DNA of 20,476 bases. It comes from a virus. The stretch lies in IMG/VR virus record IMGVR_UViG_3300021963_004603, positions 1-20,476 of that record, one strand, 5' to 3'. Below are positions 4,723 through 12,702 of this stretch, one piece after another (position 1 is the first letter of the stretch; each line of letters begins with the position of its first letter). The translations under genes were made by a program, and so were the position numbers. Under the pieces are notes generated by a model. It saw only the letters and a program-made list of their open reading frames with translations, had not been told where the DNA came from and did no database searches.

Positions 4723-5352
4723 TTAATCATCTCCAAAATAGTACGGATTTTCTACCGTTTTAAACTCACCTCTATTATATAGCGCCTTGGTCTCAAAGTC
4801 CATAAACAAAAACTTATTTGATGGTGTTGGTATACTACCTTCAAACTTCGTTGATGAAATGTTTAACTCATTATCGAAGAACATAGGGCTAATATCGTTC
4901 CTAAAAAGATAAGCTCCAGCCCCGTCATACCACAGACAACTAAAAGATCCGTCCACGTTGTTAATTTCATCTCTAGACGTATTGACAGCTCGAAGTAACA
5001 ACTGAGTATCCCAGTTCGTATCGTTGCCAAAGCGTGCCTGCATCTCTTTAACATAATTTGCCTTTATGATACCGTTATGCCAGAGAGCAGTAAACCACTC
5101 CCTTGCCGGGTGAATACTATCAAAGTCTCTTGCCTCTGTAGTTGGTGCCTGTATGTGAACGATACCATAGCCACCATCCTCTATCAAGTTAAGTAAATCT
5201 TTATCAAATGTGCCCAATCCTTTAACAATCACATGTAAGTCACCATGTAATGGTATAACAGAAAAAGAAAATGAATGACTGCCTCGATAGCTATTAAGAT
5301 CTATCAACTCAATCAGCTTATCTTTACTAAACGATCCTATAATTGCACACAT
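4723..5352 (-). CDS. Class II glutamine amidotransferase (GATase) beside queC
   Basis: A 209-residue single-domain N-terminal nucleophile amidotransferase. MCAIIG at the start places Cys2 as the nucleophile exposed after Met removal, as in PurF/GlmS (MCGI). The remaining class II landmarks are HIQAPT (66-71), WHNG (91-94, oxyanion hole Asn-Gly) and NWDTQLLL (113-120), followed by GSFSCLW. It would release ammonia from glutamine. It has no synthase domain of its own. The start forms TAATG with the queC stop, and in phage 9g and some archaea a Gat domain is fused to QueC, so the natural partner is QueC. It may feed ammonia for nitrile or amide formation, or convert preQ0 to an amidine or amide product. 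Which of these it does is inference. Confidence 0.75.
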   Translation of the reverse strand: MCAIIGSFSKDKLIELIDLNSYRGSHSFSFSVIPLHGDLHVIVKGLGTFDKDLLNLIEDGGYGIVHIQAPTTEARDFDSIHPAREWFTALWHNGIIKANYVKEMQARFGNDTNWDTQLLLRAVNTSRDEINNVDGSFSCLWYDGAGAYLFRNDISPMFFDNELNISSTKFEGSIPTPSNKFLFMDFETKALYNRGEFKTVENPYYFGDD

Positions 5353-6101
5353 TATTTAATTAGCTTATCCCAAGGTATCGCAACATTATACGGAATTGGA
5401 TCCTTAATGCCAGCTTTGGCAAAGTTAGCAATACGTTCACTGCATGAAGGACACTTCCCACAACTCTGCCCGGCCTCATTGGGATTGTAGCATGTGAGGG
5501 TGAATGCTAGTTCTACATTACCTAACTCATTGGCAATCATCAACTCATCGTACTTGGATAGGGCAGAGAATGGGGCCTCAAGACTGGCCTTATGTGAGCG
5601 ATTTTGTTCGGCAACAGCATTCATACTATCAACAAATCGTTGACTGGTATCCCAGTACCCGTACTCGTCATGTACTTGTAAGCCAGTAAAGACATGGGAT
5701 GCTTTATTAGACTCGGCAAATGAGAATGCCAGGGAGTTTAAGATCATATTACGAAACGGTACATATGTCTTTGGCTGTGGGTCACCTAATACGTCTTTGA
5801 TCGTTGGCATTGCAACACTCGTGCCGCCAATATTGGCTGATACATTCTTTACTATCTCACCTAAGATGCTTAGGTTAAGGATCTTATGGGCAATGTTCAA
5901 ATGACGGCACGTTGCTGCAGCCATTGCCAACTCACGTACCTGCTTCTGTCCATAATCATATGACAAAGCAAATACCTTATCCTTACCATACTTCTTTACC
6001 AGAATATAGGTAAGGATAGTAGAATCAAGTCCTCCAGATAGGACTGATACTACATTAAATGGCGTCTCTGGGAGCTTTGCCAGTGCTTGTTCTAAGTTCA
6101 T
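5352..6101 (-). CDS. queC: QueC, 7-cyano-7-deazaguanine (preQ0) synthase
   Basis: QueC converts 7-carboxy-7-deazaguanine to preQ0 using ATP and ammonia. The protein has the PP-loop SGGLDST at residues 22-28 and a four-cysteine zinc site near the C-terminus (C204, C214, C217, C220, within CYNPNEAGQSCGKCPSC), both hallmarks of the family. Length 249 is slightly above typical bacterial QueC (about 220-235). An AAAGG ribosome site lies seven bases before the ATG, and the gene begins inside the last 47 bases of the MazG-like gene. The stop overlaps the amidotransferase start. Together with FolE, QueD and QueE from the same window it completes preQ0 synthesis from GTP. Confidence 0.95.
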   Translation of the reverse strand: MNLEQALAKLPETPFNVVSVLSGGLDSTILTYILVKKYGKDKVFALSYDYGQKQVRELAMAAATCRHLNIAHKILNLSILGEIVKNVSANIGGTSVAMPTIKDVLGDPQPKTYVPFRNMILNSLAFSFAESNKASHVFTGLQVHDEYGYWDTSQRFVDSMNAVAEQNRSHKASLEAPFSALSKYDELMIANELGNVELAFTLTCYNPNEAGQSCGKCPSCSERIANFAKAGIKDPIPYNVAIPWDKLIK

Positions 6102-6291
6102 CTTTTAACCTTTCAACATATACCGCAGCATCTAACAACTCTTCTTGTAAGTGCTGCAACCATCCTAACGTATCAATATCTTTTCGTTCTGTAGTAGTAC
6201 CATACTTGGTGTAACCGGCGCCCATTCTCTGCCACAACATACGACGAACGGCCTCTACATTCTTATCAATTGGAAATGTATCGTATTCCAT
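6055..6291 (-). CDS. MazG-like small protein
   Basis: A 78-residue protein, MEYDTFPIDKNVEAVRRML..., whose C-terminal helix WLQHLQEELLDAAVYVERLK resembles the EExxD-type helices of MazG/all-alpha NTP pyrophosphatases. Such proteins hydrolyse non-canonical or excess nucleoside triphosphates, or act on signalling nucleotides, but this one is shorter than a full MazG domain (about 100 residues). The frame extends upstream to 6315, but the ATG at 6291 forms TAATG with the queF stop and has a GAGG site, so I prefer it. The gene overlaps the queC start by 47 bases. A role in clearing or balancing nucleotide pools during base modification is plausible but unproven. Confidence 0.62.
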   Translation of the reverse strand: MEYDTFPIDKNVEAVRRMLWQRMGAGYTKYGTTTERKDIDTLGWLQHLQEELLDAAVYVERLKDELRTSTGKAPRDAI

Positions 6292-7217
6292 TATTGCCTC
6301 GGCGTCTTTGTGCAAGGAAGACCTGCATTAACAATTGCGCCATAGACATGCAGTAATCTAATATCAGTTGCACGTACGGGGTTAATATCAATACCACCAC
6401 GGCGTGTATACAGACATGCAACGAACAACTCTTTAGGGTTGATCAGGTCCTTAATACGCTTGTAAATACACTCACAAATCTCTTCATGGAAATGGTTCTC
6501 ACGTCTCATGGAGATGATGTATTGTAGTAACGATTCAGGTGTTACTGACTGATCACCTTTAATATGAATGTATACATCGCCCCAGTCAGGTTGATTGGTA
6601 ACACGGCAATTGGAACGGAGTGAATTCGAACGCCATCTCTCGTATCTACCTATGCTTGGAACTACTTCAAGAATATCTGCGCTCTCGTTATAGTTATTAA
6701 ACTCCATACCTTCTACATTACAGTATGTTTCTAGTGATGTAAAGTCACCAATGATCGGGCGTGTCGTATCTACATCACCTAGGAACAGACAGACGTCAAC
6801 CTCCCCACCAACAGCCTTTGATAGATCGGCGGCAATTTTATCCTCTAGCCTCCAAAGGTCTCGCAACTCATCTACAACACATGCCATGTTAAAGGAGTTG
6901 AGGTATAACTTAACTGATTTACTCTCTACAATGTTTGGGGTATCGGAACTGTAAGCGAATTTAATCCAACCTGATACAGGGAAGCCATTCTTAAGTAAGG
7001 TAGAGAACTCATATGCATTCCATGCATCACGTCCGGCAAAGGGTAAGTTACCTTCTTCAATACCATACTGTTCACGATTCAAATAACGAGGTACGGATAC
7101 CAGGAGACCTGGATCGACTGCATCTGGTGTCACATATGGTTTAACTACAGACCCATCACCTGCCTTACCTAGGTGGACGGATACTAATTTATTTAATTCG
7201 TCTTGTCTACTCATCAT
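6291..7217 (-). CDS. queF: QueF, preQ0 reductase (NADPH-dependent, long form)
   Basis: QueF reduces the nitrile of preQ0 to the aminomethyl group of preQ1. The family signature ESKSVKLYLNSFN is at residues 98-110, the catalytic thioimide cysteine is C204 in LRSNCRVTNQPDWG with the partner Asp at 211, and HFHEEICE (242-249) and YTRRGGIDINP (270-280) match the long E. coli-type QueF closely. Length is 308 against 282 in E. coli. The start is one of two adjacent ATGs (7217 or 7214), ATGA-coupled to the kinase-like gene. QueF in a DNA-modification cluster indicates that preQ1, not only preQ0, is the intended DNA base or its precursor. Confidence 0.95.
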   Translation of the reverse strand: MMSRQDELNKLVSVHLGKAGDGSVVKPYVTPDAVDPGLLVSVPRYLNREQYGIEEGNLPFAGRDAWNAYEFSTLLKNGFPVSGWIKFAYSSDTPNIVESKSVKLYLNSFNMACVVDELRDLWRLEDKIAADLSKAVGGEVDVCLFLGDVDTTRPIIGDFTSLETYCNVEGMEFNNYNESADILEVVPSIGRYERWRSNSLRSNCRVTNQPDWGDVYIHIKGDQSVTPESLLQYIISMRRENHFHEEICECIYKRIKDLINPKELFVACLYTRRGGIDINPVRATDIRLLHVYGAIVNAGLPCTKTPRQ

Positions 7218-7753
7218 CTTCCTTCTAATAAATCCATAATCGAATTAACTCTGTTACGAACAGAGCCTTTAACACGATGTAAGGTTAGTTTCTTATTAAT
7301 AATAATAGCTTCAAACATATCTGCTATTTCGTTTCTAAAATCAATATCTACACTACGCACCCCATCATCTACTATATCAAACTCAGGTTCAATATAGAAA
7401 ACATGATTGTATTGCTTCCATACCCGGTTAAAAACTTCTGTAGCATAGGCAACAGTCTGATTATTGACCTTTGCATGCTTATACAAATAGGTAGTATATA
7501 CCAGTCCATCTAAGGCTGTACGATCGGTTAACATTCTGTCGTGCATGAATACATTCACAATATGCTCATTCATAATAAGGCGCTGGGTTGTATCAGTCCC
7601 ACCCTCATTGATAGGCAACCCATAACTCTTCACCCGACGAGTAACCTCATCGCATATAATAAAGTTATTTTCAGAGAATAGTTTCTCCGAACGTAAAGCA
7701 TTCAATAGAGTAGTCTTACCTACTGATTGAGCACCCGTTATACCTATACGCAT
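7214..7753 (-). CDS. P-loop kinase/ATPase (NadR-like, AAA_28-type)
   Basis: A 179-residue single-domain P-loop protein beginning MRIGITGAQSVGKTTLLNAL, with Walker A GAQSVGKT (7-14), a CDEVTRRVK segment (about 35-43) like the E-x-x-R region of NadR-type nucleoside kinases, a MLTDRTALDGL strand (about 73-83, Asp-Arg) like the DR(S/T) of deoxynucleoside kinases, and a basic C-terminal helix. The frame opens at 7783, but the ATG at 7753 is chosen because the Walker motif then sits where expected and an AAGGA site precedes it. It sits between the formyltransferase and queF. It may phosphorylate a nucleoside or other small molecule; the substrate is not evident. Confidence 0.7.
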   Translation of the reverse strand: MRIGITGAQSVGKTTLLNALRSEKLFSENNFIICDEVTRRVKSYGLPINEGGTDTTQRLIMNEHIVNVFMHDRMLTDRTALDGLVYTTYLYKHAKVNNQTVAYATEVFNRVWKQYNHVFYIEPEFDIVDDGVRSVDIDFRNEIADMFEAIIINKKLTLHRVKGSVRNRVNSIMDLLEGR

Positions 7754-8298
7754 ATACCCATTTCCTTCATTGCAAATATCCACGCCGCCAGAGATGTGCT
7801 CTTTAACATATCAAATGTTTCTTCTAATGAGCGCGCATTATTGGTAAGATGAACGCTCTTTATGATTCTACCTGCATCTACCTCAGGTACAACCTCATGT
7901 ACTACGCTGCCTAAGAACTTATAGTTCCCTTTATTCTCCCATGTTCTCTCCTGGGGATCCTTACCTTTTAAATCTGAATACAAATCGATTGCACCTGGAT
8001 GCCCATTGAGCATCTTATACTTACCACACACCTCGGCTGGAATGATTCTAAGATAGCCATGGAGGGTGATTATAACATCATCTGGATTATAGATCACGTT
8101 ATCCATCATATAAGCCATCAACCTATCATGCTTGGCTGCCATAATAGTACCCATAGATCTGAGATCGGGATGGTATTTCCACTTATCCTCTAGCATGTTA
8201 TTAGTAACAATGAGGTCTGGCTTGACGCCCAGGGCATAAGATAGGTTGACTATCTCCGAACCTGTCTGACTAAAGAATGCAATCCACTTCTTAGCCAT
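7744..8298 (-). CDS. dpdN: Formyltransferase, PurN-like; candidate dPreQ1 formyltransferase (DpdN)
   Basis: A 184-residue protein with the formyltransferase fold of GAR transformylase. The catalytic trio is visible as N98 and H100 in MLNGHPG and D141 in VPEVDAGRII, matching the N-x-H and D of PurN. GSVVHEVV (130-137) corresponds to the PurN GxTVHxV strand. It would use 10-formyltetrahydrofolate. It overlaps the DpdA-like gene by eight bases and lies two genes before queF, so purine synthesis is a less likely role than formylation of the preQ1 aminomethyl group in DNA, the activity reported for phage DpdN. The family is certain; the substrate is inferred from context. Confidence 0.82.
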   Translation of the reverse strand: MAKKWIAFFSQTGSEIVNLSYALGVKPDLIVTNNMLEDKWKYHPDLRSMGTIMAAKHDRLMAYMMDNVIYNPDDVIITLHGYLRIIPAEVCGKYKMLNGHPGAIDLYSDLKGKDPQERTWENKGNYKFLGSVVHEVVPEVDAGRIIKSVHLTNNARSLEETFDMLKSTSLAAWIFAMKEMGICV

Positions 8299-9076
8299 TA
8301 CAAATAGCCCTAAAGCATTCGATGTTATAGAGTACCAATTGTAGTTCGTATGAACTGAGTTTACTATCGATCATGGTATGGAGTTTCTGGGAAGGTTTAT
8401 CTTCTAGTCCGTTCCTACCATTATACCTCATTCCCTTGATAGCGGCAACTACTGGGTTAGATGTATCTACGCTATCAATCCATTCGTAATCAGAATAGCT
8501 ATCGAACTCCTGTGGCAGTCCACAACCAAGTAGGTGATGGGGCTTATCGGTGTTGATAACGTTATCAGTTAGTAGACGATGGATGAGTGCATCTCGTCCA
8601 TACATGTAGTGATGGTACTTTGTAGGGAGATATCCATTGAGCTCAGGGTTAATAAAGAAACTATAGTCAAAGGAGATAGCAACCTTATCAACCAATGGTT
8701 CTACCTCCTGGTAACACCATTTAATTTCTTCATATGTCTTACCCTGCACCACTCCGATAGACTTACATCCGTTAACTGGCTTCCAACTTTTGGCATTAGC
8801 GACTGTCTTCTCAGCATTCTCCAATGCATCAGGTATGACATAGTAAGTAGGTTGTAGTTTTTCAATCCAAGGATAAAACTTATCAGCCTCAAAGGCCTCA
8901 CCCAACTCAAAGATAGAGTTATCAAGAATAATCTCTCGTCCTATCTCCTTGGCGCGTACAAATTTATCCCAATACTCCTCATTCTCTTCAAACAGATGAA
9001 CAAGGGCATAATCATAATCTGTAACCTCTTGTACACGGTTAAAGATACACAGGGGTGCTTCATGGGCGATCTTCAT
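8291..9076 (-). CDS. dpdA: DpdA-like DNA guanine transglycosylase
   Basis: A 261-residue TIM-barrel protein related to tRNA-guanine transglycosylase (TGT). Visible echoes of TGT are ILDNSIFELG (50-59, substrate-binding Asp region), YVIPDA (79-84), GVVQG (108-112, the G(I/V)VQGG strand), HLLGCGLP (181-188, the YLMGVG loop) and WIDSVDTSNP (199-208), which lines up with the nucleophile Asp of TGT (MFDCVxPTR). The C-terminal CxCxxC...H zinc site of tRNA TGT is not visible. The combination of compact size, missing zinc motif and neighbours FolE/QueCDEF points to DpdA, which swaps guanine in DNA for a 7-deazaguanine. The frame can start at a TTG at 9079; the ATG at 9076 has a GAGG site. The DpdA subfamily cannot be set without a tree. 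Confidence 0.85.
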   Translation of the reverse strand: MKIAHEAPLCIFNRVQEVTDYDYALVHLFEENEEYWDKFVRAKEIGREIILDNSIFELGEAFEADKFYPWIEKLQPTYYVIPDALENAEKTVANAKSWKPVNGCKSIGVVQGKTYEEIKWCYQEVEPLVDKVAISFDYSFFINPELNGYLPTKYHHYMYGRDALIHRLLTDNVINTDKPHHLLGCGLPQEFDSYSDYEWIDSVDTSNPVVAAIKGMRYNGRNGLEDKPSQKLHTMIDSKLSSYELQLVLYNIECFRAICNG

Positions 9077-9461
9077 CAAATACCTCTAATAGTTTTTTAG
9101 TTTCTTGAGCCTTTTCACGCTCACGCTTTTGATAGTATACAGTATTAAGCCAGGTCATACGATCGATGATACGATCAATCTCCGGTCTAGTTAACTTAAC
9201 AATCTCAGTTACTCCAGATACCTTATCTTCAATCCATAAGTTCTTTGGATAGAATGCTTTGAATGTCTCCTCCACACCCTTCATCTCCTCCAATGGGCCA
9301 TAAACGGTCTTCATGATCTTGATATCCCATTTATTGTATTGCTCAGGCTCATAGGTAAACCTATCCATTGCATCATATGAGGAGGTATGTCCAAACTTAA
9401 AGAACTCAACCTCTTTGGTCTGCTTATTAGTAAAGCGTGCCAAGTACATCTTACCGTTCAT
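9060..9461 (-). CDS. Hypothetical protein, possible GIY-YIG/T5orf172-like domain
   Basis: A 133-residue protein. The N-terminus KMYLARFTNKQ (4-14) and KFGHTSSYDAMDRF (22-35) has the spacing of a short strand, a turn, and KxGxT...R as in T5orf172/GIY-YIG-type domains, but the second motif is not the classical YIG and a catalytic Glu is not certain. The C-terminal third is a charged helix rich in Arg, Glu and Lys (KREREKAQETKKLLEVFDED). It is ATGA-coupled to the gene before and overlaps the dpdA start by 17 bases. It could be a nuclease-like accessory of the modification genes or a degenerate binding domain; I assign no function firmly. Confidence 0.6.
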   Translation of the reverse strand: MNGKMYLARFTNKQTKEVEFFKFGHTSSYDAMDRFTYEPEQYNKWDIKIMKTVYGPLEEMKGVEETFKAFYPKNLWIEDKVSGVTEIVKLTRPEIDRIIDRMTWLNTVYYQKREREKAQETKKLLEVFDEDRP

Positions 9462-9727
9462 ACACCTTTCCCTTCACCAGCTAGAAAATAGTTAGTCATA
9501 GTAAACACCAATAACTTCTTAGACTCTGATTGACCTATAATCTTAATAAATTTAGTCTTTGTAGTAGAAGATGCGCTTGAACTTTCAATAATATCATAGC
9601 ACATAGACTTAAACTCTTCAAGATCGGCCGTTTCTAATGCCTTAAATAGTTTGGTCATTGCCTCCTCACCAATAGTATCTTTCTTGACCCTGGGCTTGGA
9701 GCTTGATTGAGTTATCGAATCAGACAT
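9458..9727 (-). CDS. Hypothetical protein, 89 aa
   Basis: A small soluble protein of 89 residues that I do not recognise. It has a polar, serine-rich start (MSDSITQSSSKPRVKKD), followed by a mainly helical part (EEAMTKLFKALETADLEEF, then KTKFIKIIGQSESKKLLVFTMTNYFLAGEG). No catalytic motif is visible. The start codon lies within the last bases of the 48-residue membrane gene, in another frame, and the stop is ATGA-coupled to the following gene. From memory, proteins with a similar ending occur in marine T4-like phages, but I cannot name a role. Confidence 0.65.
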   Translation of the reverse strand: MSDSITQSSSKPRVKKDTIGEEAMTKLFKALETADLEEFKSMCYDIIESSSASSTTKTKFIKIIGQSESKKLLVFTMTNYFLAGEGKGV

Positions 9728-9858
9728 GCTATCACTCCTACAAACATACAGAAGACAAACGAAATAGCATATGCATACATTCTTTCGTCAATATCTTTCA
9801 TTACTTCATCCTTACAATCACACCAGCGGCCTTCATAGCACTCACCATTGCAGCTCAT
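9712..9858 (-). CDS. Small Cys-rich single-span membrane protein, 48 aa
   Basis: A 48-codon gene: MSCNGECYEGRWCDCKDEV then a short charged linker and a hydrophobic helix (AYAISFVFCMFVGVIACLI). Four cysteines cluster within the first 15 residues (C3, C7, C13, C15), suggesting a metal-binding or redox head outside the membrane segment. A GGAG site lies six bases before this ATG; an ATG two codons earlier is too close to the site. It is the first gene after the sigma70-like promoter at 9885-9913, and its end overlaps the next gene by 16 bases. Function unknown. Confidence 0.65.
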   Translation of the reverse strand: MSCNGECYEGRWCDCKDEVMKDIDERMYAYAISFVFCMFVGVIACLIR

Positions 9859-9884
9859 AGTCATCTCCAAAGTTAAGATAATCT

Positions 9885-9913
9885 ATTATAGCCACTTATG
9901 TAATTTAAGGCAA
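9885..9913 (-). promoter_or_regulatory. Sigma70-like promoter, start of the dpdA-queF-queC operon
   Basis: Reading the minus strand, TTGCCT (9908-9913) and a perfect TATAAT (9885-9890) are separated by exactly 17 bases. The -35 matches four of six consensus positions. The element begins immediately after the folE stop codon and is followed by a short leader and a GGAG ribosome site at the 48-residue gene. It lies in one of the few intergenic gaps of this dense region, so it probably drives the block from the 48-residue gene towards the clamp genes with host sigma factor. Confidence 0.65.
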
Positions 9914-10606
9914 TTAAAGTTTTTCGTTATATGTCTGCTGTAAGGCAATGTTATCGAAGAACTCTTTCTTTACGTCTGCCTGATGGAATTGACCATGAAG
10001 AACGGTTGTCTGGGTAAGGGAAGAATGGGCATTGATTCCTCTATTCTCACAACATCCATGCCTGGCAGCAATGTATACTGCAACGTCAGGTGATTCAGTT
10101 GACTTCATGATAGAGTTAGCAATATGGGTGCACAATTCTTCCTGTAATGTACCCCTACGTGCATGCCATTGAGCCACACGTGCATACTTAGACAGACCAA
10201 TCACCTTATTACCTGGAATAATACCAATGTATGCAATCCCCCTTACCGGTTGATGGTGATGGGAACACATTGATTTAAGTTCTGCCCTTACTACCAGCAT
10301 ACCTGTATAGCGTTCTGTTCCGTCGTTAGGGAATGCAGTAGAGTCTGGTTCGGGGTAATAGCGACCGGACATGATCTCGTCTACATACATCTTAGCCAGA
10401 CGCTTCCCTGTGCCCTTACTATTGGGATCATTCTCGGTATCAATGAGTAAGGAACTTAAGACTCCATTGAACTTCTCTGTTAACTCGTTCACCAATAACT
10501 CTCGATTATCATCATCAAGGTATTCAGAAATATTATCACAAGCAAAGAACCGTTTACCGTCCTGCTTCATTCTCTCACGTAACACATCAGAAAAATATCG
10601 TTCCAT
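9914..10606 (-). CDS. folE: FolE, GTP cyclohydrolase I
   Basis: GTP cyclohydrolase I opens GTP to dihydroneopterin triphosphate, the first step towards 7-deazaguanines. The zinc ligands are visible as C114 and H117 in SMCSHHHQPV and C185 in RHGCCENRG, matching E. coli C110, H113 and C181. The conserved core KVIGLSKYARVAQWHARR (134-151) follows at the right distance, and SSLTQTTVLHG (195-205) matches the conserved TxT...G region near the C-terminus. Length 230 is close to the E. coli enzyme (222). It lies two bases after queD and is followed directly by a promoter. The same product could also feed folate synthesis, but the QueD/QueE neighbours make deazaguanine supply the likely role. Confidence 0.95.
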   Translation of the reverse strand: MERYFSDVLRERMKQDGKRFFACDNISEYLDDDNRELLVNELTEKFNGVLSSLLIDTENDPNSKGTGKRLAKMYVDEIMSGRYYPEPDSTAFPNDGTERYTGMLVVRAELKSMCSHHHQPVRGIAYIGIIPGNKVIGLSKYARVAQWHARRGTLQEELCTHIANSIMKSTESPDVAVYIAARHGCCENRGINAHSSLTQTTVLHGQFHQADVKKEFFDNIALQQTYNEKL

Positions 10607-10608
10607 AA

Positions 10609-11085
10609 TTATCCCACAAATTCATTATCTTCTCTATGACCGACTCTCATTGCCATGTTTGAGTCAGTCTCCCTCACCTCAACTTTACTACACCATACAC
10701 GTTTGGCCTCTTCGCCCCAGCCCGGTAACATAATTGTGTTGATGTATTCGTATAGGAAGTCAGCCAATCCTTCACATCCGGTCTTCTCTACCTCGGTGAT
10801 CTTAGCCAATCCTAGTTTGCCTAGTTTCAGTAACTCCTCACGCTGGGGGTCATCTTGTGCAACCAACAACGTATGATCGAACCAGTCTTCTAAGTTATAC
10901 TTTAGATCTTTTAGACCACCAAAGTCAACGCACCAGTTACGGGCATCCAAGGTATCACATTCGAATTCAAAATGGAAGGATAGAGCATAACCGTGAATCA
11001 GATTACAATGACTATCGGCCCTCCACTGTCTATATGCTACAGGTCCTAAATGTCTGTAGGTCTTTGTTGAAATATATTTTGCCAT
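10609..11085 (-). CDS. queD: QueD-like 6-carboxytetrahydropterin synthase, divergent
   Basis: QueD converts dihydroneopterin triphosphate to 6-carboxy-5,6,7,8-tetrahydropterin. Here the active-site stretch reads ADSHCNLIHGYAL (23-35): Cys27 aligns with the catalytic cysteine and His31 with one zinc ligand, but the position of the usual third ligand (HGH) is Tyr33, and the N-terminal AAH ligand region reads VAY. The FDHTLLV segment (69-75) supplies the catalytic Asp-His, and RNWCVDFGGLKDL (49-61) matches the vDF/L segment of the family. Length is 158. The start at 11085 is set by TAATG overlap with queE and a GGGGA site; an ATG at 11097 has no ribosome site. The T-fold assignment is secure, but the zinc site differs from the textbook one. 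Confidence 0.88.
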   Translation of the reverse strand: MAKYISTKTYRHLGPVAYRQWRADSHCNLIHGYALSFHFEFECDTLDARNWCVDFGGLKDLKYNLEDWFDHTLLVAQDDPQREELLKLGKLGLAKITEVEKTGCEGLADFLYEYINTIMLPGWGEEAKRVWCSKVEVRETDSNMAMRVGHREDNEFVG

Positions 11086-11936
11086 TAGGTTCCCCATTCA
11101 TTTTTAAATAGCGGTACTTGTAAACGGTCACTATATCTCCATCCTTTTTTCATGGCGTATTCAGCAACCTGTCTATTATTAAGAGCGTACACCCGTTCAA
11201 CCCCACCAACAGGCATAAGGTAAACAGGCCCGTCAAAGCCTTTGTTACGATACTCATCTACAGCCCTTTCCGCCTCATGCACGTGAAGCATATCACTTAC
11301 TACGAACTTAAGATAGGTAAACCCAATCATAGAGTATTGTGCTACAACGTTAGGGATGATTGCATCTTCCCATTTCTCACCTGATGCCGATAGCTTGGGT
11401 GATACTGAAAAGGTAAGACAATCGTAACCCCCTGTTGCAAACGTCCACTCACTTAGGTAGTTATAGAACTCCGGTGATAGTTCTTGTGTACCGTTTGTCT
11501 CAAATGTTATCTCCTTTAATCCTTGCATCTTAGGATGTGAGAGTAGATCGGGATATGCACGCTGCCATCCTAGTAAAGGCTCACCTCCGGTGATTACGAG
11601 ATGTTCGTCTTTCCATTCCTTGTACGGTAGGAGATCCACAATCGAATCGGCCAGTGAGTCAGTAGGGATAACAGGACTGAGATGCTTAAAACGAACATCC
11701 CAAGAAGCATATGAATCACAACCAGTAGAAACAAGAGGAAGACTTTTATAGGTCTTGTAATTGTCTGCATTGTGTGCTATCACTTCTCTTTCTTGACTCT
11801 TCTCACCTGCTGGCATACCAAAGCCATCACAGGTAAAATTACAGCCAAAGGTTCTTAGAAAGACAGAAGGTACGCCCATATAGCGACCCTCACCTTGAAT
11901 GGAGTAGAACAACTCCGATACTTTTAATTTCGACAT
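11085..11936 (-). CDS. queE: QueE, 7-carboxy-7-deazaguanine synthase (radical SAM)
   Basis: QueE rearranges carboxytetrahydropterin to 7-carboxy-7-deazaguanine. The N-terminus VSELFYSIQGEG is the standard QueE opening. The iron-sulfur cysteines are arranged as C32 and C36 (GCNFTC) and then, after 36 other residues, C73 in STGCDSYASWD, which aligns with the usual WCDTxYAW. The third cysteine is thus displaced by an insertion. HLVITGGEPLLGWQ (radical SAM GGE motif) and EITFETNGTQ follow. Length is 283, longer than minimal bacterial QueE because of the insertion. The start at 11936 has an AGGAG site at ideal spacing; a GTG two codons upstream is less likely. It heads the queE-queD-folE trio. Confidence 0.93.
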   Translation of the reverse strand: MSKLKVSELFYSIQGEGRYMGVPSVFLRTFGCNFTCDGFGMPAGEKSQEREVIAHNADNYKTYKSLPLVSTGCDSYASWDVRFKHLSPVIPTDSLADSIVDLLPYKEWKDEHLVITGGEPLLGWQRAYPDLLSHPKMQGLKEITFETNGTQELSPEFYNYLSEWTFATGGYDCLTFSVSPKLSASGEKWEDAIIPNVVAQYSMIGFTYLKFVVSDMLHVHEAERAVDEYRNKGFDGPVYLMPVGGVERVYALNNRQVAEYAMKKGWRYSDRLQVPLFKNEWGT

Positions 11937-11972
11937 TAACACTCCTAGTTATACGTGGAAGGGCACGATAGA

Positions 11973-12491
11973 TTATATAGCTTGTTTTAGCTCACGCGCC
12001 TGTTGTCTATCGAGTTGCTTCTTCTTATTAAGTGCCCGTTGTAGGTGCACAGGGTTAGCTCTTTTAGTATAGCTAATCCCATTTAAATGATCAAGTTCGT
12101 GTAAGATGGCACGGGCGGTCATACCAATAAATTTCTCTGTATGAAACTCACCCGTTACATCTTGATACCTTACCTTAATGATTTTTGGTCTCTTAATCTT
12201 AACAACCATGTTAGTATTAGAGGCACAAGTCTCTTCTAATATAATGTGTTCGGTTGTCTCGTCGATCAACTTAGGATTAAAGATCACTAATGGGTCTTGG
12301 GTGTGAAAGACACATACACGATAAGGTAGTCCACATTCGTTGGCCGACAGACCTATACACTTACGTTCAATTAATGTCTCAAGTAAGTCACGGGCAAGCA
12401 TAACCGGGTCGGTAGGTGGATCCTTAAAGTCAAAAGTAGGAATCTTATTGTGTAATAATTCGTTACTCGGGTCAACTAATTTTAATACCAT
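11973..12491 (-). CDS. def: Peptide deformylase-like protein
   Basis: A 172-residue metallohydrolase of the peptide deformylase family, which removes the formyl group from new protein N-termini. Motif 3 HELDH is intact (zinc ligands and catalytic Glu). Motif 1 reads IGLSANECG instead of xGLAAxQxG, so the usual Gln is Glu. Motif 2 reads EETCASN instead of EGCLS, keeping the zinc cysteine but losing the Gly and Leu. The start at 12491 has an AGGTGG site; an upstream GTG frame extension to 12521 is less likely. Marine T4-like phages often carry a deformylase. Here it directly precedes the deazaguanine genes, 36 bases before queE, so a non-protein substrate should be considered, but nothing in the sequence proves it. 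Confidence 0.85.
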   Translation of the reverse strand: MVLKLVDPSNELLHNKIPTFDFKDPPTDPVMLARDLLETLIERKCIGLSANECGLPYRVCVFHTQDPLVIFNPKLIDETTEHIILEETCASNTNMVVKIKRPKIIKVRYQDVTGEFHTEKFIGMTARAILHELDHLNGISYTKRANPVHLQRALNKKKQLDRQQARELKQAI

Positions 12492-12702
12492 TCTGCCACC
12501 TTTCCGACCAACTCTTACCACAGGAGAGACATCTCTTATTGGTTGTAGTTACATTCATATCGGGGTTAATATTGACCCCTTGTTTGTTATAGGTAGGTGG
12601 GAAGTACATACCAGTAACGGAACTAGGACCTTCCTGTATCATACAGTCATCCCTCATACATCCTGGCCCACCATCTGTATACTCTGAAAGAAACTTTGTC
12701 AT
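12472..12702 (-). CDS. Small protein with possible zinc ribbon, 76 aa
   Basis: A 76-residue protein coupled to gp46 by ATGA and overlapping the deformylase start by 20 bases. Four cysteines (C15, C20, C58, C61) form two pairs, CMRDDC and CLSCGKSW, a layout that could bind zinc, separated by a tyrosine/proline-rich and Asn-rich stretch. From memory, short proteins beginning with a similar MRDDCMIQEG segment occur near gp46 in marine T4-like phages. No function can be stated. Confidence 0.65.
   Translation of the reverse strand: MTKFLSEYTDGGPGCMRDDCMIQEGPSSVTGMYFPPTYNKQGVNINPDMNVTTTNKRCLSCGKSWSERWQNGIKIS

What the first reader, a model, noticed from the sequence alone, without database searches (positions are those of the whole stretch)
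4723..11936. One phage block encodes a whole route from GTP to formylated preQ1 in DNA
FolE, QueD, QueE and QueC (GTP to preQ0), QueF (preQ0 to preQ1), a DpdA-like transglycosylase and a PurN-like formyltransferase all sit within 7.2 kb. The set matches what is known of phage 7-deazaguanine DNA modification and of DpdN, which makes 2'-deoxy-7-(formylamino)methyl-7-deazaguanine. Finding every step from GTP to the final mark in one T4-like genome implies host-independent supply of the base and probable resistance to restriction enzymes. The genes are seen in the sequence; the final chemical product is inferred.
Basis: partly seen in the sequence, partly recalled or inferred. Interest (0 to 1): 0.9.

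Follow-up and report, generated by a model that had tools for sequence, protein, structure and literature searches.

The report
Kinase-linked phage guanine-replacement gene cluster
A T4-like virus of bacteria carries a compact gene set that builds a modified guanine and swaps it into viral genetic material, and its relatives nearly always keep a nucleotide-kinase-type gene near the swapping enzyme, a link that could help explain how such phages replace every guanine.

Summary
In detail: FolE, QueD, QueE, a DpdA-type transglycosylase, a PurN-like formyltransferase, QueF and QueC lie on the minus strand, with most checked active-site residues conserved. The transglycosylase has the TGT fold (Z 17.8). 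Part of the gene order matches Flavobacterium phage immuto. The formyl-preQ1 product is plausible but inferred; the names DpdA3 and DpdN come from a paper I recall and could not open.

In two samples of related loci, 80 of 80 informative loci and 77 of 79 (74 within 2 kb) carry near this DpdA either that kinase or a DUF3310 protein, the domain of T7 gp1.7, a dTMP/dGMP kinase. Neither was found in 12 DpdA1/DpdA2 control loci. In sample 2 the kinase mostly stays where no formyltransferase or base-synthesis gene is near.

So complete dG replacement (published for CP220/CPt10) may involve deoxynucleotides, not only finished DNA. Untested; a recalled negative result argues against it.

The parts
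11085..11942 (-). QueE-like radical SAM, 7-carboxy-7-deazaguanine synthase
   Evidence: phrog_2076 1.7e-53; C34, C38, C75 conserved in at least 95% of 61 homologues; five NCBIfam QueE models match, all below cut-off
10609..11097 (-). QueD-like 6-carboxytetrahydropterin synthase
   Evidence: PTPS 3.6e-16; phrog_2389 6.7e-42; CxxxHGY, with Tyr in 58 of 58
9914..10606 (-). FolE, GTP cyclohydrolase I
   Evidence: PF01227 6e-38; C114, H116, H117, C185 conserved in at least 95% of 69
8291..9079 (-). DpdA-type guanine transglycosylase (DpdA3-like; subfamily name recalled)
   Evidence: 54.9% to an immuto protein annotated as DNA guanine transglycosylase, 38-39% to Campylobacter CP220-group proteins; model pLDDT 92.4; VIA Z 17.8 to archaeosine TGT
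7744..8298 (-). PurN-fold formyltransferase (DpdN-like; name recalled)
   Evidence: profile to PDB GAR transformylase 1.4e-13; N98, H100, D141 invariant in 32; 38.9% to the immuto gene after its DpdA
7214..7783 (-). P-loop kinase, AAA_28, in the conserved slot near DpdA
   Evidence: PF13521 5.9e-16; model pLDDT 88.1; Foldseek best hits deoxyadenosine kinase, NadR, dCK, thymidylate kinase; synteny
6291..7217 (-). QueF, two-module preQ0 reductase
   Evidence: QueF_N and QueF over Pfam cut-offs; TIGR03138 231.8 bits, below cut-off 293.45; C204 and D211 conserved in at least 95% of 76
6055..6315 (-). small conserved protein, labelled MazG1 in my scripts; function not established
   Evidence: six PHROGs of unknown function; no Pfam, no PDB match; conserved EEL/M-DA--Y core
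5352..6101 (-). QueC, preQ0 synthase
   Evidence: TIGR00364 161.8 bits, over cut-off 150.3
4723..5352 (-). stand-alone class-II glutamine amidotransferase (Gat) next to QueC
   Evidence: profile hits glucosamine-6-phosphate synthase 1e-5; C2, R23-G24, N93-G94, D115 invariant in 12 and in at least 95% of 36; QueC-Gat order also in nt-1, pf16, Vibrio 2.275.O; the class-II pattern itself is recalled

Best explanation
This is a phage 7-deazaguanine DNA-modification operon of the DpdA3-like kind. FolE, QueD, QueE and QueC (Gat probably feeding ammonia to QueC) make preQ0 from GTP; QueF reduces it to preQ1; the TGT-fold enzyme swaps guanine for preQ1; the PurN-fold enzyme probably formylates the aminomethyl group. 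These steps follow from homology. The kinase is an integral part of the module: it, or a DUF3310 protein like the domain of T7 gp1.7 in the same slot, is kept near this DpdA in nearly every locus examined. The most economical reading is that the slot phosphorylates a guanine-type deoxynucleoside monophosphate. Whether that is (d)GMP, as pool or recycling support while DpdA works on DNA (about 0.5), or the modified nucleotide itself, with exchange before polymerisation (about 0.35), is open.
For: Families and conserved residues. TGT fold. PurN fold with triad. Order DpdA, formyltransferase, kinase, QueF as in immuto, whose first gene is annotated DpdA. Kinase next to or just behind DpdA in all 18 phage records that hold the DpdA (4 immuto, 14 Campylobacter, duplicate accessions included; positions). 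QueC, divergent DpdA, kinase, DNA polymerase in CC_R7. Sample 1, 84 loci: kinase in 57, all within 2 kb; DUF3310 in the slot in 23; contig ends first in 4. Sample 2, 80 loci: kinase in 77, 74 within 2 kb and 3 at about 6.8 kb; L176 ends; L168 and L187 have none. In sample 2 the formyltransferase is seen in 19 of 80, and FolE, QueD, QueE, QueC in 3, 3, 4, 4 of 80 within the stretch. DUF3310 is a domain of T7 gp1.7, reported to phosphorylate dTMP and dGMP (PMC7693777, passages). The best DpdA tree needs 4 slot changes. Neither family within the stretches read of 10 DpdA1 and 2 DpdA2 loci. dG is 100% replaced in CP220 and CPt10 (PMC8306585, passages), against none to about 32% in the DpdA1/DpdA2 phages of PMC6884629 Table 2.
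Against: No chemistry was measured for this phage. The kinase fold does not tell nucleoside from nucleotide kinase. DUF3310 activity is inferred from T7 gp1.7, where the domain covers residues 122-184 of 196. The kinase family also occurs in 89 Streptomyces phage records, and in the one examined it is not near deazaguanine genes. Well-supported branches force as few as 1 slot change for DUF3310. L032 and L066 hold both a kinase in the slot and a DUF3310 gene after QueF, and five loci hold two DUF3310 genes, so the families are not strictly exclusive. Two sample-2 loci lack both. QueF, QueD, FolE and QueE score under their NCBIfam equivalog cut-offs. Simple motif checks in sample 2 held in 57 of 70 QueF, 18 of 19 formyltransferases and 70 of 78 kinase frames, some frames being cut. 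HVTV-1 reaches about 30% dPreQ1 with no DpdA of its own.
Confidence: 0.62

Rival explanations
1. DpdA exchanges the base on finished DNA, as is accepted for DpdA. The kinase only supports the pool: it re-phosphorylates GMP/dGMP, for example from guanine released by DpdA and captured by the phosphoribosyltransferase often encoded nearby.
For: Nucleic-acid-level action is the stated view (PMC12783734 introduction, passages), and dpdA inactivation abolishes modification in CAjan (PMC6884629). A PF00156 phosphoribosyltransferase lies in 9 of 10 large contigs, in 44 of 85 sample-1 loci, and in 25 of 30 kinase loci against 0 of 8 DUF3310 loci of the deduplicated set with enough upstream DNA. FolE of MMDA13 and Vibrio 2.117.O carries an N-terminal region matched by my phosphoribosyltransferase profile, by Pfam only weakly and in one of the two (0.0096).
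Against: Does not predict why the kinase stays with DpdA where base-synthesis and formylation genes are not near, nor why the DpdA1/DpdA2 loci examined lack it. The window's 164-kb sibling shows no such phosphoribosyltransferase. The base rate of PF00156 in phages was not measured.
Confidence: 0.5
2. Exchange occurs on the nucleotide: DpdA turns dGMP into d(preQ1)MP, the kinase makes the diphosphate, and the polymerase inserts the modified nucleotide, as in 2-aminoadenine phages.
For: A kinase-type slot filled by two unrelated families; 100% dG replacement in CP220/CPt10. In the deduplicated set, 33 of 35 kinase loci and 0 of 13 DUF3310 loci hold a gene I scored as a phosphohydrolase: 16 of the PRA-PH/MazG type, 1 HD type (CP220) and 16 of the unproven MazG1 type. 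A MazG-type enzyme makes dGMP in S-2L (PMC8342488, passages).
Against: Recalled abstract of Crippen 2019 (not held): no dADG phosphate was seen in Campylobacter infections. Half of the phosphohydrolase count rests on MazG1, which could not be shown to be a MazG. The link is one supported independent pair only (4 on all branches). A MazG-like gene also lies beside Gat in the DpdA2 phage pf16.
Confidence: 0.35
3. The final mark is not formyl-preQ1 but dPreQ1 or dG+ (archaeosine), with Gat and QueC making the amidine and the formyltransferase acting elsewhere.
For: Gat fused to QueC makes dG+ with phage 9g DpdA (PMC6884629), and Gat stands beside QueC here and in nt-1, which has a little dG+. The paper says that phage QueF and QueF-like proteins are hard to tell apart by sequence.
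Against: QueF here is the two-module type with its catalytic motif, and the formyltransferase sits two genes from QueF, next to DpdA, with its triad kept. Immuto, which has the formyltransferase, shows no Gat in the 24.8 kb read.
Confidence: 0.25
4. The genes raise queuosine in host tRNA rather than modify phage DNA.
For: Suggested in PMC6884629 for phages without DpdA.
Against: A DpdA homologue is present, and it shares only 13-15% identity over 221-231 residues with the tRNA TGTs listed. The paper found no queuosine-specific gene in the viruses it analysed; I did not search this phage for them.
Confidence: 0.04

Closest known systems
Flavobacterium phage vB_FspM_immuto_2-6A (NC_055915)
   Same: QueD, QueE, FolE, DpdA, formyltransferase, kinase, QueF in one block, the last four in the same order
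   Different: No QueC or Gat found in the 24.8 kb read; a PRA-PH/MazG-type gene upstream of DpdA; DpdA 54.9%, formyltransferase 38.9%, kinase 38% identical
Campylobacter Firehammervirus CP220 / CPt10
   Same: DpdA homologue (38-39%) followed directly by the same kinase family
   Different: No QueF or formyltransferase in the CP220 stretch read; HD-phosphohydrolase/P-loop fusion upstream; mark is dADG at 100% of dG
DpdA3 and DpdN of Cui et al. 2023 (NAR gkad657; not held, recalled; only its citation seen)
   Same: Recalled: DpdA3 allows complete replacement of guanine; DpdN is a predicted dPreQ1 formyltransferase
   Different: I do not recall a kinase in that account and could not check
Phages 9g and CAjan (DpdA1), nt-1 and pf16 (DpdA2)
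   Same: preQ0 route beside a DpdA; QueC-Gat pair in nt-1 and pf16
   Different: No kinase of this family and no DUF3310 found in the stretches read; partial modification in CAjan and nt-1
Cyanophage S-2L Z-cluster (PurZ, DatZ, MazZ)
   Same: Works-like comparison only: nucleotide-pool enzymes clustered with a base-replacement enzyme
   Different: Different chemistry; no protein shared, so far as recalled

Membership tests
TGT/DpdA transglycosylases | TGT-type fold | tested here: met
   Model pLDDT 92.4; Z 17.8, rmsd 2.9, 231 residues to 1iq8; Z 17.7 to TGT with preQ0, 2pwv
TGT/DpdA transglycosylases | catalytic Asp pair and preQ1-binding motifs | tested here: inconclusive
   D53, D84, Q112, D205 conserved in at least 95% of 84; equating them with TGT D102, D156, Q203, D280 is recalled, not computed residue by residue
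tRNA TGT | zinc-binding Cys/His site and sequence-family match | tested here: not met
   No Pfam or NCBIfam TGT match; only C122 and C186 are conserved cysteines among 84; the zinc motif itself is recalled
DpdA3 subfamily (recalled name) | groups with CP220-type and immuto DpdA, not with DpdA1/DpdA2 | tested here: met
   tblastn finds 18 phage records, all immuto or Campylobacter; the profile finds nothing in DpdA1/DpdA2 control loci; no joint tree with other DpdA classes was built
PurN (GAR transformylase) | equivalog score | tested here: not met
   27.9 bits against 150.1
Formyltransferase superfamily | family match and N-H-D triad | tested here: met
   Pfam 27.4 over 26.1 bits; profile 1.4e-13 to 3kcq; N98, H100, D141 invariant in 32; the triad is recalled
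DpdN (recalled) | formylates dPreQ1 | not testable with these tools
   Synteny and 39% identity to the immuto gene only
QueF | nitrile reductase Cys and Asp, score | tested here: inconclusive
   C204 and D211 conserved in at least 95% of 76; 231.8 bits under cut-off 293.45
QueC | equivalog score | tested here: met
   161.8 over 150.3 bits
QueD | zinc triad of histidines | tested here: inconclusive
   The usual HGH (recalled) reads HGY in 58 of 58; PTPS over cut-off; QueD model 36.8 under 89.25 bits
dNMP kinases | phosphorylates a dNMP | not testable with these tools
   Fold shared by nucleoside and nucleotide kinases

The most novel reading that the evidence does not exclude
DpdA3-type phages replace guanine before polymerisation: the transglycosylase works on dGMP, and a dedicated kinase (P-loop type or T7 gp1.7 type, interchangeable) carries the 7-deazaguanine nucleotide towards the triphosphate. 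So far as I know this would be the first transglycosylase route to a wholly substituted dNTP pool, and it would overturn the post-replicative view for this DpdA class.
Probability: 0.33. Interest if true: 0.87.

Novelty: new variant of a known kind. Interest (0 to 1): 0.6.

Why it matters
How some phages replace every guanine, while other DpdA phages replace only a part, has no settled mechanism in the papers I could read. A kinase tied to this DpdA class, and swapped for an unrelated kinase-type family at the same place, gives that question a direct test with two purified proteins. If nucleotide-level exchange is right, these enzymes could also make 7-deazaguanine dNTPs for whole-genome base replacement.

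Tried and rejected
Chance association of the named genes: rejected by synteny in two samples. The protein at 6055-6315 as a MazG: not shown; no Pfam, no PDB match, no profile link to the PRA-PH type or to DUF3310, on thin alignments. MazG as a mark of nucleotide-level exchange: dropped as decisive, because pf16 (DpdA2) has one and only one supported independent pair exists. Protein charge as a sign of DNA binding: the DpdA proteins are acidic (median net charge -11 and -8, 67 distinct each), but so are nine DpdA1 proteins (median -6), so uninformative. Pfam thymidylate kinase (PF02223) in ten large contigs: none found; other kinase families were not searched there, apart from a Walker-motif listing in the window's sibling that showed no second small kinase I recognised. 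Phosphoribosyltransferase in that sibling: none found by two searches. CAjan DpdA as query gave 3 loci in IMG/VR, so controls came mainly from named phage records, chosen by me from a spread list of 40 of 230 records. In the control loci one other P-loop frame of 130-280 residues appeared, annotated Sak4-like, about 10 kb from CAjan DpdA. Papers: Cui 2023 and Crippen 2019 are not held. Nine paper searches were counted; eight touched this subject (one search was on T7 gp1.7). No title or abstract start in those listings mentions the kinase link, but the two key papers could not be read, so I do not claim that it is unpublished. Sampling: each scan kept the best 80 of more than 500 matches; the 84 loci of sample 1 hold 68 distinct DpdA proteins; sample 2 was not deduplicated; CP220 is in both. 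Dropped before counts: L003-L009 (duplicates) and, in the 84, L012 (the window's sibling, still in the 85-locus family counts).
Full report
OBSERVATION. The block reads, in transcription order on the minus strand: QueE, QueD, FolE, two small frames kept in 30 and 20 of 85 sample-1 loci, DpdA, formyltransferase, kinase, QueF, a small conserved protein, QueC, glutamine amidotransferase, then a dCTP deaminase-like protein (PF22769, 2.7e-11) and a protein with only weak glycosyltransferase matches. The capsid protein at 18997-20361 matches 2,502 phage records, best Stenotrophomonas phage DLP6 at 71%. The window is 92-95% identical in DNA to parts of a 164,146-base IMG/VR contig.

BIOSYNTHESIS. QueC is over its equivalog cut-off; FolE, QueF and QueD are over Pfam cut-offs but under NCBIfam equivalog cut-offs; QueE is clear only by PHROG. 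FolE Cys/His residues, QueF Cys/Asp and three QueE cysteines are conserved across sample-1 homologues; their roles are recalled. QueD carries HGY in 58 of 58, where I recall HGH. The stand-alone amidotransferase has the class-II pattern and sits beside QueC also in nt-1, pf16 and Vibrio 2.275.O. In 9g a Gat domain is fused to QueC, and that protein with DpdA makes dG+ (PMC6884629, whole Results section read).

KEY ENZYMES. The DpdA model is confident (pLDDT 92.4) and matches tRNA-guanine transglycosylases (Foldseek best 1.3e-8; Z 17.8). By tblastn its relatives among 50,697 phage records are 4 Flavobacterium (immuto) and 14 Campylobacter records; CC_R7 was added by synteny and profile. The formyltransferase has PurN-fold relatives (1.4e-13), an N-H-D triad, and a conserved FSQTGxE segment near its start; among phage records only the immuto ones match it. 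That this pair equals DpdA3 and DpdN is from memory of Cui 2023.

THE KINASE SLOT. A kinase follows DpdA within 2 kb in 57; a DUF3310 protein lies in the slot in 23; in the other 4 (L021, L025, L026, L044) the contig ends first. Of 61 distinct ones with at least 2.5 kb downstream, 42 have the kinase and the 19 others DUF3310. Sample 2 is the best 80 loci of a CP220-led scan (548 matches before the limit): kinase in 77, 74 within 2 kb and 3 at about 6.8 kb together with the formyltransferase; L176 ends; L168 and L187 have none. Here the formyltransferase is seen in 19 of 80, QueF in 70 and QueC in 4 within the stretch; of 10 sample-2 contigs searched whole, 4 show a QueC. CC_R7 has QueC, a divergent DpdA (26% to the window; profile 2.3e-19 among six proteins with a composition bias of 15 bits), kinase (7.3e-26) and DNA polymerase in a row. 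In the isolate records the kinase is adjacent to DpdA, or one gene away in immuto, in 18 of 18. So the kinase-type slot is the steadiest partner of this DpdA across both samples, with QueF next.

WHAT THE SLOT MEANS. DUF3310 is a domain of T7 gp1.7 (4.5e-23, residues 122-184), a protein described as phosphorylating dTMP and dGMP (PMC7693777, passages). The P-loop kinase is of the deoxynucleoside kinase / NadR / thymidylate kinase fold. The best DpdA tree needs 4 changes between the two; well-supported branches force as few as 1. Some loci hold DUF3310 genes in a second place after QueF. Non-homologous exchange at one position points to one function, and a guanine-type deoxynucleotide kinase is the overlap; this is inference. 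Controls: ten DpdA1 loci and the DpdA2 loci of nt-1 and pf16 show neither family at E 0.01; the kinase in the one Streptomyces phage examined lies away from deazaguanine genes.

MECHANISM. Shown: genes, predicted folds, conserved residues, synteny. Inferred: substrates and products. CP220 and CPt10, which have this DpdA and kinase, are reported to have all dG replaced by dADG (PMC8306585, passages), against none (Orion) to about 32% (CAjan) in the DpdA1/DpdA2 phages of PMC6884629 Table 2. The accepted view puts DpdA on finished DNA and 2-aminoadenine at the nucleotide level (PMC12783734, passages). A dedicated kinase fits the nucleotide level better, but I recall that no dADG phosphate was found in Campylobacter infections, so I leave DNA-level exchange with pool support ahead (0.5 against 0.35). 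A phosphohydrolase association that would strengthen the nucleotide model rests half on an unidentified protein and on one independent pair, and is not specific to this DpdA class.

VERDICT. The kinase slot is the part I found in no paper that I could read, and it is testable.

Noticed in passing
window 10609-11097; 58 aligned sample-1 homologues: QueD carries CxxxHGY rather than the usual HGH (recalled) in 58 of 58; a zinc ligand may be changed.
   Followed up: partly
L201 4095-4982 (MMDA13), L202 4007-4930 (Vibrio 2.117.O): FolE has an N-terminal extension matching the phosphoribosyltransferase profile of DpdA3 loci (weak in Pfam); a possible guanine-salvage link to the deazaguanine route.
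   Followed up: partly
L129 3796-4746, L168 9522-10589: IMP dehydrogenase / GMP reductase family genes (PF00478) within about 4 kb of DpdA, another guanine-nucleotide theme.
   Followed up: no
L032 2813-3196, L066 6418-6657: A DUF3310 gene follows QueF in two loci that keep the P-loop kinase in the slot.
   Followed up: no
window 11973-12521: Peptide deformylase directly upstream of QueE, present in 32 of 85 sample-1 loci; a link to formylation was not tested.
   Followed up: no
many sample-2 loci, for example L122, L131, L138: DpdA, kinase and QueF form a three-gene cassette on the strand opposite to flanking structural-type genes.
   Followed up: no
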